Below, piece by piece: positions 9,551 to 62,915 of a DNA stretch of 64,000 nucleotides. The first letter of the stretch is position 1. The number at the start of each line of letters is the position of its first letter. The position numbers and the translations under genes were made by a program. This stretch comes from Koleobacter methoxysyntrophicus (GTDB taxonomy: Bacteria; Bacillota; Thermosediminibacteria; Koleobacterales; Koleobacteraceae): the NCBI RefSeq assembly GCF_017301615.1, contig NZ_CP059066.1, positions 1,781,001 through 1,845,000 of the forward strand. Direction: 5' to 3'. The notes under the pieces were generated by a model. It did no database searches and had not been told where the DNA came from. It saw only the letters and a list, made by a program, of their open reading frames with translations.

Positions 9551-9722
9551 AGCTATTCTCCTTTTTAATACATCATTCATTATTTATAATCTTAAAGTTT
9601 CTACATGAATAGCAAAAACCCTTTTCCATTGAAAAAGAAGGAATATTTGAATATATACCGAATACTTATTATAAAATATAATATGAATTTGGCAATTGTA
9701 ATTGGCATATTTAAAAATCGTC

Positions 9723-9823
9723 ATTTCTCCGAACCAGAGGACTAAGGGAAATAATTCCTATGAAATCTGGTCGCCAGGGTGTATCTGGAAACGGATATGC
9801 CTCCCTTATCGGAAAGGAGAAAT
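9723..9823 (+). ncRNA. Moco riboswitch aptamer
   Basis: A molybdenum-cofactor RNA motif heading the Moco operon. P1 is an 8-bp perfect helix, ATTTCTCC (9723-9730) with GGAGAAAT (9816-9823). Inside, ACCAGA (9733-9738) pairs with TCTGGT (9766-9771). The conserved core GCCAGGG, then GGATATGCCTCCC, then TATCGGAAAGG closely follows the E. coli moaA leader, which has CCAGGG ... GCCTCCC ... TATCTGGAAAGG. Everything downstream for 6.5 kb makes or uses Moco, which supports the call. Whether it senses Moco or tungsten cofactor cannot be told. Confidence 0.92.
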
Positions 9824-9874
9824 TTAATCAAATTTCCCGGCTGTTCCGATAAGGGGCAGTCGGTTAATTTATTT
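9803..9874 (+). promoter_or_regulatory. Predicted expression platform of the Moco riboswitch
   Basis: CCCTTATCGGAA (9803-9814), part of the aptamer core and P1 neck, is perfectly complementary over 12 nt to TTCCGATAAGGG (9844-9855). The latter lies in the loop of a second hairpin, CCGGCTG (9837-9843) with CAGTCGG (9857-9863), followed by TTAATTTATTT. The two pairings exclude each other. Inference: with ligand the aptamer folds and the downstream hairpin, a weak terminator, forms; without ligand the 12-bp helix replaces both. Confidence 0.65.
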
Positions 9875-26438: not shown

Positions 26439-26465
26439 GTACAATTTTTTTTATTCCCGTTAAAT

Positions 26466-26556
26466 CAAATCCCTACGCTGGCATTACCCAGATCAGGTTA
26501 GAGGGTCTGAACCTTTGGTTCACTCTCAGCCGGCCTAACCAGCTCCCCTTTTTGCA
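26466..26556 (-). ncRNA. TPP riboswitch
   Basis: On the minus strand the THI-box sequences are all present: GGGGAGC at the 5' side, GGCTGAGAG, ACCCTCTAACCTGATCTGG and TAATGCCAGCGTAGGGA. It senses thiamine pyrophosphate and controls thiM-thiE-phosphatase through the terminator that follows. Confidence 0.98.
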
Positions 26557-26732
26557 GTATTTTATTTTTTACTTCAGTTAGATTATACAATCTTTTTTTT
26601 GGATGGTCAATACACCAAATACAAAAAATTCTGCAATAACCCGGAGGTTAATTAACAACTATTACCTTGGCAATTTTCAAAAAAAGATGTTAGAATAAAG
26701 TTGTTAAGTTACTGCAAAAAGGAGGCATACAT

Positions 26733-40624: not shown

Positions 40625-40767
40625 AATTTCTAGAAAACCTTATCTGGATTTAAATCAACTCTATATAGCCCCATTCCTGTTTGGAAGGTAGTGTCATCAG
40701 TCAGAGAAGGATTAACTTGCAAAATCCCCGATAAAATGGTAGTATAAAAGCATAAAAAACTTTGAAT

Positions 40768-40945
40768 ACAACAGGCTGTGGTACCGTTTCGGTTTAAAAG
40801 TGAAAGCGGTGAGAATCCGCTACAGCCCCCGCTACTGTGAGTGAGGACGAAACCCACTGCCGCTACTTGGCGGTAAAAGCCACTGGATTCGTTCCGGGAA
40901 GGTGTGGGAAGTAGGAGGAATCACGAGTCAGGAGACCTGCCGCAG
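40768..40945 (+). ncRNA. Cobalamin (B12) riboswitch
   Basis: The leader shows GTGAGAATCCGCTACAG, CCCCCGCTACTGTGA, the B12 box AAAAGCCACTGG, GGGAAGGTGTGG and GAGTCAGGAGACCTGCC, in the normal order. It senses adenosylcobalamin and heads the cbi operon. A terminator lies 45 bases downstream. Confidence 0.98.
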
Positions 40946-40988
40946 TTAAAAAGACCTTCGGGTGGAAGGCATTAATAATAAGCAAAAG

Positions 40989-60458: not shown

Positions 60459-60734
60459 ATGGAACTTAAAAATTATATGGAAGACCTGGTGCTTATGAAA
60501 ATCGATGAAGTCCTAAAAGACCAGAAGGTGTGCAGATGTGAAAGGTGCAGAATGGATATTGCTGCAATAGCCTTAAACAACCTGCCGCCGAAATATTATG
60601 TAACCCGCAGGGGTGAAGTATATTCAAGGGCTACTTCATTTAATGTACAGTTTGAAGCCGATGTGGTTGCCGCTATTCTTAAAGCAGTAAAGCAGGTTTC
60701 CGGCAGACCCCATCACGACCGAATAGATGACTAG
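60459..60734 (+). CDS. ComFB-domain protein within the pilus operon
   Basis: 91 aa. MELKNYMEDLVLMKIDEVLK, CRCERCRMDIAAIALNNLPP and VQFEADVVAAILKAVKQVSG match the late competence protein ComFB family. The cysteines of VCRCERC may bind a metal. Recent work ties some ComFB-domain proteins to c-di-GMP sensing for pili and motility in cyanobacteria; that would fit its place here, but is inference. AGAGGAGGT before ATG 60459. Confidence 0.9.
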   Translation: MELKNYMEDLVLMKIDEVLKDQKVCRCERCRMDIAAIALNNLPPKYYVTRRGEVYSRATSFNVQFEADVVAAILKAVKQVSGRPHHDRIDD

Positions 60735-60758: not shown

Positions 60759-61691
60759 GTGTGGTGGAGGTCTTCGATAGGTCTGGACATAGATATAAAG
60801 TATATTAAGGCCCTTCAGCTGGAACGGAAGAAAGGAAAGAATTTTGTAAGATATGGGATTACACCAACACCGCCCGGTGCAATAATAGAGGGAAAGGCAT
60901 GTAACATAGCACTGCTGTCAGAGGCCATTAAGAATTTAATAAAGGATAATAAATTTAAGGGTAAAAAGGTTATTGCATCTCTTCCCGACAATGCCGTTAC
61001 ATTAAGGTATATTTACCTCCCTGTGATGACGGAAAAGGAACTGGCAGAAGCCGTAAAATGGGAATCAATGGATTATTTTCCGGAATCTAAAGGAAATATA
61101 TCCCTGGATTATAAGGTACTTGAATTCATCCAGAGGGGATACGTCTCCAACGTAGAACGGGAGATGAGGGTTCTTTTGGCTGCTGTAGAAGAGGATTTAG
61201 TAATGGGATATATTGAAGCATTACAGAATTCGGGGCTTTACCCCGTTGCCATTGAACCATCTCCCGTCAGCATATGGCGAGGTACGGGACGGTATCTAAA
61301 AAAGCCGACAGCTGTCATAGATATGGAGGGCGGAATAGTAAATGTTACCCTCATAAAAGAAGGCTTCCTTCACTCCAGCAGGCTGATTCCCGGAATATTT
61401 AGCGGTATGGACGACATAGGCTATATAACCCGGGAAATCGGCAGGTTTCTCGATTTCTACAGGTCCCAAAATAGAGGTAGGGGAATTGAAGACATAGTGC
61501 TGGCAGGAGAAGCTTCCTGTTTACCGGCTTTTTCCCATGCCGTTACGGAATTGACGGGGTTAAAGGTCCTTGATCCAGATATTCTAAGGGATTTTAATAC
61601 TGCAGAGGGAAATCCCGGGGATTTTAAGACCGATCGTTCTTTTTTATTTACGACCTTCGGCCTTTCCCTTAGAAGGAGGGGGTCTTCCTGA
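60759..61691 (+). CDS. pilM: Type IV pilus assembly protein PilM
   Basis: 310-aa actin-like cytoplasmic protein. SIGLDIDIKYIKALQLERKK, IASLPDNAVTLRYIYLPVMT, and EAVKWESMDYFPESKG are PilM signatures; AVIDMEGGIVNVTLIKEGFL is the second phosphate-binding loop. GTG 60759 is favoured since GGGGG lies 8 bases before it. It binds the N-terminus of PilN. Confidence 0.93.
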   Translation: MWWRSSIGLDIDIKYIKALQLERKKGKNFVRYGITPTPPGAIIEGKACNIALLSEAIKNLIKDNKFKGKKVIASLPDNAVTLRYIYLPVMTEKELAEAVKWESMDYFPESKGNISLDYKVLEFIQRGYVSNVEREMRVLLAAVEEDLVMGYIEALQNSGLYPVAIEPSPVSIWRGTGRYLKKPTAVIDMEGGIVNVTLIKEGFLHSSRLIPGIFSGMDDIGYITREIGRFLDFYRSQNRGRGIEDIVLAGEASCLPAFSHAVTELTGLKVLDPDILRDFNTAEGNPGDFKTDRSFLFTTFGLSLRRRGSS

Positions 61692-62287
61692 GATTCAGAC
61701 GAGAGCTTAAACACGACAAAATAATAGCATCCCATATTAAAAAAGAGATTAACCTGATTCCCCGGAAGGTAATTAATGAGCGGAAAAACAGGAGAAAATT
61801 AGCTTTTTTAGGCGTTATTACGGTAATAATTGCAGGGATAATGATACAGGGGGTTCTAATGCTTGAATCAGAGATTTCAGTGAGATTAAGGGTGTTACAG
61901 GACTTAAATGAGCAGGCCGGTGTTTTTATTTCCTTTTTAGAGGAAGAAAAGGAAATCAGCCGATCTATTGGGGAAATAGAAAAAGAGATTTCACTGATTC
62001 TAACCCTTAAGGACCAGGGCATCCAGGGGAGCAGGATTATGAAGGAAATATCAGCTGTCGTCCCATCAGATGTTAAATTGACCCAACTGTCTGTCAGCGA
62101 AGAAAAGGGTCTGGTTATTTCGGGAATAACGGAGTCTAATTCATCCATAGCACAGTTTATGGTAAACTTAGAAAACTCCCGTTATTTTGAGGAAATCAGG
62201 CTCAGCTATATCAAAAGGGAAGATAATAAAGGAGAAACCGATACCCTTTTATTTGAGCTAGCGGGGGAACTGGAAGGAAGGGATTGA
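61688..62287 (+). CDS. pilN: Type IV pilus assembly protein PilN, apparent CTG start
   Basis: About 199 aa. The conserved PilM-binding motif INLIPRK (in KKEINLIPRKVINERKNRRK) lies upstream of the first ATG (61841), and that ATG falls inside the single membrane helix, so the start must be further 5'. The open frame is closed by TAG at 61670-61672, and between that stop and the motif there is no ATG, GTG or TTG. CTG 61688 is the only near-cognate codon placed correctly: AAGGAGGGGG (61672-61681) ends 6 bases before it, and it overlaps the pilM stop as CTGA. After TM (FLGVITVIIAGIMIQGVLML) come a coiled coil and a ferredoxin-like domain. Confidence 0.88.
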   Translation: MRFRRELKHDKIIASHIKKEINLIPRKVINERKNRRKLAFLGVITVIIAGIMIQGVLMLESEISVRLRVLQDLNEQAGVFISFLEEEKEISRSIGEIEKEISLILTLKDQGIQGSRIMKEISAVVPSDVKLTQLSVSEEKGLVISGITESNSSIAQFMVNLENSRYFEEIRLSYIKREDNKGETDTLLFELAGELEGRD

Positions 62288-62288
62288 G

Positions 62289-62915
62289 TTGAAGGTCAAA
62301 CTAAAGGGTAGAGAAAGAAACCTTGTAATATTTCTGGCTGCTGTTATGCTGTTTTTTTCCTATTATTCCTTCCTCATACGACCCCGGTTGAGCAAAATAC
62401 AGGAACTGGATAGAGAGATATTACAGGTAAAAACTGAGCTGCAGCAGGGGCAGAAGGCTAAAGAGGCAGTTATTTTCAAGAAACAGGAATTTTCTATAAA
62501 AAAAGAAAATCTGGAGCATCTAAAGGATGCCGTCTCTGAAAACTTGGGGATACCGGAAATTATTGCCGATATAGAACAAACTATGAATAATTGTAGAATT
62601 GTTGAAGATTACCTCATTCCCGGAACCGTTAGTTATGATGAGTCAACAGCCTGTTATTCCATCCCTATAAGACTGGGGTTCACAGGTGAATACCGGGATA
62701 TGACCTCATTTTTAGAAGCCCTGGAGGGGAAGCGGAGATTAATAAATATTAAGGAAGTTCATATTAAAAGGGACGAACAGGTATTTACCCCTAGCAAACC
62801 CCTGAAGGGTGAGGTGGTAATGCTGATATATGCCTATACAGATAGGGAAAATCCTTCGAATATGCCGGAACCTTTTTTAAAGGGTAGTTTTGGTAAAGAG
62901 GCCCCTTTTAGGTAA
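62289..62915 (+). CDS. pilO: Type IV pilus assembly protein PilO
   Basis: 208 aa from TTG 62289, 1 base after pilN. Membrane helix at residues 11-28 (LVIFLAAVMLFFSYYSFLI), coiled coil about 30-85 (KIQELDREILQVKTELQQGQ), and a ferredoxin-like domain (YSIPIRLGFTGEYRDMTSFL). Forms the PilM-N-O alignment complex. pilQ is absent, as expected in a Gram-positive. Confidence 0.9.
   Translation: MKVKLKGRERNLVIFLAAVMLFFSYYSFLIRPRLSKIQELDREILQVKTELQQGQKAKEAVIFKKQEFSIKKENLEHLKDAVSENLGIPEIIADIEQTMNNCRIVEDYLIPGTVSYDESTACYSIPIRLGFTGEYRDMTSFLEALEGKRRLINIKEVHIKRDEQVFTPSKPLKGEVVMLIYAYTDRENPSNMPEPFLKGSFGKEAPFR

What the first reader, a model, noticed from the sequence alone, without database searches (positions are those of the whole stretch)
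61670..61850. pilN appears to start at CTG
The PilM-binding motif INLIPRK is encoded upstream of the first ATG, and no ATG/GTG/TTG lies between the preceding in-frame stop (61670-61672) and the motif. CTG 61688 has an AAGGAGGGGG site 6 bases before it and overlaps the pilM stop as CTGA. Natural CTG starts are rare in bacteria. It could set a low PilN level tied to PilM translation.
Basis: partly seen in the sequence, partly recalled or inferred. Interest (0 to 1): 0.55.

Follow-up and report, generated by a model that had tools for sequence, protein, structure and literature searches.

The report
Probable CTG start of pilN
A pilus-assembly gene in a Bacillota bacterium lacks any ordinary start codon and most likely begins at the very rare codon CTG, placed by a strong ribosome-binding site where the neighbouring gene ends; it is a rare but not unheard-of oddity that still needs proof from protein or read data.

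Summary
pilN (Pfam PilN) has no ATG/GTG/TTG between its upstream stop and INLIPRK, nor in any other forward frame there; the first ATG (61841) would remove the cytoplasmic tail. CTG 61688 lies 8 nt after GGAGG, the commonest spacing in a 464-kb sample of this genome, behind an unusually strong Shine-Dalgarno site (6 of 357 sampled starts as strong), and overlaps the pilM stop as CTGA. Of 57 pilM-pilN junctions read elsewhere, all 57 have an ordinary start near the motif, and 24 offer one at the same -4 overlap: only the first base is odd here. pilN is the sole credible SD-CTG start in the sample; the one other candidate is a broken murQ-like gene. ATT has no ribosome-binding site (-0.3 against -16.6 kcal/mol). 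A miscalled base cannot be excluded: two other conserved genes in the sample look broken. Best reading: true CTG start, coupled to pilM termination (0.6). The 'low PilN level' idea is plausible but untested.

The parts
60759..61691 (+). pilM (GTG 60759; TTG 60744 also possible), stop TGA 61689-61691
   Evidence: Pfam PilM_2 E 3e-23; PDB PilM 3jc8, 2ych, 5eou
61670..61672 (+). in-frame TAG upstream of pilN
61673..61682 (+). Shine-Dalgarno site AAGGAGGGGG inside the end of pilM; duplex -16.6 kcal/mol; GGAGG ends 8 nt before CTG
61688..61690 (+). proposed start codon CTG, overlapping the pilM stop as CTGA (-4)
61688..62287 (+). pilN, 199 residues from CTG
   Evidence: Pfam PilN E 7.6e-15 over residues 117-182; no NCBIfam match
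61688..61735 (+). 16-codon N-terminal extension relative to orthologs; coding score neutral
61736..61738 (+). ATT at the orthologous start position (rival start); no SD (-0.3 kcal/mol)
61748..61768 (+). INLIPRK motif
61841..61843 (+). first in-frame ATG, too far downstream to be the main start
62289..62915 (+). pilO, TTG start 1 nt after the pilN stop
   Evidence: Pfam PilO E 8e-10

Best explanation
pilN is initiated at CTG 61688 with fMet. The SD at the end of pilM holds ribosomes that finish pilM at TGA 61689-61691 (or fresh 30S subunits) with CUG in or beside the P site, so initiation tolerates the C-U mismatch. The ancestral junction was probably an ordinary NTGA overlap whose first base became C, and about 48 nt now lie between start and motif that relatives lack. 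PilN yield is probably lower than from ATG/GTG/TTG and depends on pilM translation. Shown: the sequence anatomy, the normality of the junction apart from one base, and the absence of ordinary starts. Inferred: actual initiation, coupling, yield and evolutionary order.
For: No ordinary start in any forward frame of the leader. A spacing of 8 nt is the mode among sampled starts with GGAGG (42 of 139), and only 6 of 357 sampled starts have an SD duplex as strong. A -4 overlap is on offer in 24 of 57 other pilM-pilN junctions (9 of 28; 15 of 31, of which L118 and L119 repeat two of the 28 and are not -4). The PilM tail ends normally (FGLSLR..., relatives IGLALRG and the like). Under similar tests 98 ordinary starts and 2 CTG starts passed in 464 kb, the other CTG being in a broken murQ-like gene. 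infC of the same genome shows the same anatomy with an ATT start (GGAGG, 9 nt, ATT), so the anatomy marks a real non-ordinary start there. The ATPase, platform, prepilin peptidase, pilin-like, pilM and pilO frames around it are open and match their families.
Against: CUG is 0.024% of bacterial starts and 0.86% as strong as AUG in E. coli (PMC11497404, passages). The extension has no counterpart in 7 aligned orthologs and its coding score is neutral (-0.0006; 87% of in-frame and 12-18% of out-of-frame 16-codon windows reach it). 0 of 57 other pilN junctions needs CTG. Both initiator tRNA matches have the normal three G-C pairs, so no relaxed initiator is seen. An SD-CUG can form an initiation complex in vitro without being used in vivo (PMC8443254). 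No read or protein data.
Confidence: 0.6

Rival explanations
1. The assembly is wrong at 61688: the organism has TTG, ATG or GTG there and the gene is ordinary.
For: The junction is normal apart from this one base. The sample holds other suspicious conserved genes: a murQ-like gene switching frame (L068) and the only full-length galU with no usable in-frame start (L062), so the assembly may hold errors.
Against: Those are frame or stop problems and may be real. A substitution at one given base of a closed 3.1-Mb genome is, by my estimate, rarer (about 1e-5 to 1e-6) than a real CUG start (about 1e-4). No reads could be checked.
Confidence: 0.15
2. pilN starts at ATT 61736, giving MKKEINLIPRK, the length of its relatives; the SD-CTG is incidental or only parks the ribosome.
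For: ATT aligns exactly with the start codon of two relatives (L006, L019) and within one residue of the other five. ATT starts exist, as infC in this genome.
Against: No SD before it (-0.3 kcal/mol). It lies 44 nt beyond the pilM stop, whereas 56 of 57 other junctions offer an ordinary start no more than 12 nt beyond the stop (the exception is L120, +70). ATT is about 0.3% as efficient as ATG (PMC10666635 quoting Hecht 2017).
Confidence: 0.15
3. A -1 slip on GGGGG (61678-61682) at the end of pilM makes a PilM-PilN fusion, GspL-like (the GspL likeness is recalled).
For: pilN is in the -1 frame and open from TAG 61670; a solved entry is named PilM,PilN (5eou), so a chimera can be made.
Against: No fused pilMN among the 57 junctions; no significant RNA structure (z 0.51); PilM ends where relatives end.
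Confidence: 0.04
4. pilN has lost its start and is decaying.
For: No ordinary start.
Against: The 199-codon frame is open, scores as coding (31.9) and matches Pfam PilN; neighbours are open and match their families.
Confidence: 0.04

Closest known systems
Rare CUG-initiated bacterial genes
   Same: NTG codon with C in first position; reported as 0.024% of bacterial starts (PMC11497404).
   Different: Here unproven; in a -4 operon overlap with a strong SD.
infC (IF3) with AUU start
   Same: Non-ordinary start behind a good SD; present in this genome.
   Different: infC's start is conserved and autoregulatory (recalled); the pilN CTG is seen in no relative examined.
ATGA/GTGA/TTGA-coupled gene pairs
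   Same: -4 overlap, the commonest overlap in prokaryotes (PMC10666635 section 9).
   Different: First base C.

Membership tests
PilN of type IV pili | PilN domain | tested here: met
   PF05137 E 7.6e-15, above cut-off
PilN of type IV pili | INLLP-like motif ahead of the membrane segment and pilM-pilN-pilO order | tested here: met
   (membrane segment read by eye)
PilN of type IV pili | motif within about 8 codons of the start (my own criterion, from the junctions read) | tested here: not met
   20 codons from CTG, 4 from ATT 61736; 57 of 57 others have an ordinary start within 8 codons
CUG-initiated gene | no ordinary start can serve | tested here: met
CUG-initiated gene | SD at proper spacing | tested here: met
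   8 nt, -16.6 kcal/mol
CUG-initiated gene | protein N terminus or initiating ribosomes at the codon | not testable with these tools
   no proteomic or profiling data
Translationally coupled pair | stop and start overlap or lie within a few nt | tested here: met
   CTGA
Translationally coupled pair | downstream translation depends on upstream translation | not testable with these tools
   needs a reporter

The most novel reading that the evidence does not exclude
PilN is made essentially only by ribosomes that have just ended pilM and re-initiate on CUG, under IF3 control as infC is, so PilN (and PilO behind it) is held at a level set by pilM translation and initiation fidelity, and PilN carries a new basic cytoplasmic extension ahead of its PilM-binding motif.
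Probability: 0.12. Interest if true: 0.5.

Novelty: new member of a known kind. Interest (0 to 1): 0.3.

Why it matters
Confirmed natural CUG starts in conserved bacterial genes are few. This one, in a coupled junction that is otherwise textbook, would test whether termination-reinitiation relaxes start-codon choice, and would show that gene callers limited to ATG/GTG/TTG cut PilN off inside its membrane segment.

Tried and rejected
Single-base frame error that would bring an existing ordinary start into frame: rejected, because no ATG/GTG/TTG lies in any forward frame of 61670-61747. Genome with generally relaxed starts: not supported; under similar tests 98 ordinary starts against 2 CTG in the sample, one of them in a broken gene, and the initiator tRNAs look normal. 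Duplication as the source of the 48-nt stretch: no second copy, other hits E 0.67 or worse. RNA structure at the junction: no better than shuffles. Papers: passages of PMC5622118, PMC11497404 (Discussion part 1 of 2), PMC10666635 (section 9), PMC8443254, PMC9845219 and PMC3724824; the rest as listings only. The listings of my searches for CTG/CUG starts and for PilN with start codon showed me no report of a CTG start in pilN.

Limits of counts: 35 of 61 genomes had a PilN hit; 30 loci were fetched; besides our own, 28 gave a readable junction (L030 dropped). In one search, 47 loci were examined, 31 counted, 16 dropped (14 no motif within 250 nt, 1 contig end, 1 false motif, L130). One search listed about 100 of 193 sites and about 100 of 116; 30 loci of each were tested (60 loci, 127 SD-CTG sites, none passed). 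The gene caller is my own and simple. In one search, 16 of 358 genes preferred a CTG when no start-codon penalty was set; besides pilN and the murQ-like gene, the other 14 were not pursued one by one: most have an ordinary start of comparable score, a few only a weak one.

Full report
What is there. The region is a type IV pilus operon: T2SSE ATPase, T2SSF, pilin-like genes, prepilin peptidase, PilX_N-like protein, ComFB, pilM, pilN, pilO, then a shikimate kinase gene. pilN is read in the -1 frame relative to pilM. The leader from TAG 61670 to INLIPRK 61748 holds no ATG, GTG or TTG in any forward frame. The first in-frame ATG, 61841, lies within what I read by eye as the membrane segment, so starting there would remove the tail that carries the motif.

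The CTG candidate. CTG 61688 follows AAGGAGGGGG. In 358 genes that I called in 464 kb (the window plus 20 stretches of 20 kb), 357 offer some ordinary start to the caller (255 ATG, 51 GTG, 51 TTG; pilN itself is counted there through a far-downstream ATG); the one 'none' was not printed by name. The gap of 8 nt from GGAGG is the commonest (42 of 139 with GGAGG), and only 6 of 357 starts have an SD duplex of -16.6 kcal/mol or better. Under one test (SD, open coding frame of 60 or more codons, no ordinary start upstream, next ordinary start at least 8 codons away), 2 of 113 CTG sites pass; the other is in a murQ-like gene that switches frame. 98 ordinary starts pass a similar test without the last condition (67 ATG, 17 GTG, 14 TTG).

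Comparison with relatives. In 28 junctions from unnamed relatives and 29 further ones from named genomes (31, two repeating G001/G002), pilN has an ordinary start available in every case, 57 of 57, within 8 codons of the motif. 24 of 57 offer one as a -4 overlap. The candidates mostly lie within -17 to +12 nt of the pilM stop; exceptions are L021 (-29) and L120 (+70). So the pilM end, the SD and the overlap of our gene are typical, and the start codon's first base is the sole oddity on that side. On the protein side it is not typical: relatives begin MKEINLLP, MKNEINLLP, LKKEINLLP or MHKLNLIP, whereas CTG gives LRFRRELKHDKIIASHIKKEINLIP. About 48 nt, in frame, lie between junction and motif beyond what relatives have. 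They have no second copy in the genome, and their codon score cannot tell coding from non-coding.

Choosing between CTG and ATT. ATT 61736 keeps the ancestral protein length but has no SD and lies 44 nt beyond the pilM stop. CTG keeps the ancestral junction. The same genome's infC has GGAGG, 9 nt, ATT, which shows that a non-ordinary start here can come with a proper SD; ATT 61736 lacks one. I therefore prefer CTG. A PilM-PilN chimera is among solved structures (5eou, entry name only); if the PilN part follows PilM, as the name order suggests, residues ahead of the motif need not stop PilM binding. That is an inference.

Reliability of the base. The contig is a single 3.1-Mb genome contig. Two conserved genes in the sample look broken (galU, the only full-length copy; murQ-like), so errors or recent mutations exist. 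I leave 0.15 for a miscalled base.

Mechanism and level. Initiation on CUG is weak in E. coli (0.86% of AUG, PMC11497404), which its authors link to the weak C-U first pair (Discussion). In a -4 overlap, ribosomes ending pilM are delivered to the site, the arrangement that PMC10666635 finds most common and reads as coupling. Low, pilM-dependent PilN synthesis follows if these results carry over; it was not tested. pilO begins with TTG 1 nt after the pilN stop, so the effect would likely reach PilO too.

Verdict. A real and well-framed observation, probably a true rare CTG start: a new member of a known kind, of modest interest until reads and an N terminus are shown.

Noticed in passing
L062:18266-19192 (-), own genome 268266-269192: The only full-length galU has no usable in-frame start: a stop codon stands just before DESAKAIIPAAG, and the next in-frame ATG lies past the conserved N-terminal motif. 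Assembly error or real lesion.
   Followed up: partly
L068:7214-8008 (-), own genome 1157214-1158008: A murQ-like gene (named from its sequence by recall) switches reading frame near its start and again near its end, where a PTS-like segment follows.
   Followed up: partly
L168, upstream of position 1501: infC starts at ATT behind GGAGG with a 9-nt gap, the classical non-ordinary start.
   Followed up: yes
window 60459-60734: A ComFB gene sits between a PilX_N-like gene and pilM in the pilus operon.
   Followed up: no
window 9715-9835 (+), 26453-26559 (-), 40762-40958 (+): Moco, TPP and cobalamin riboswitches (Rfam).
   Followed up: no
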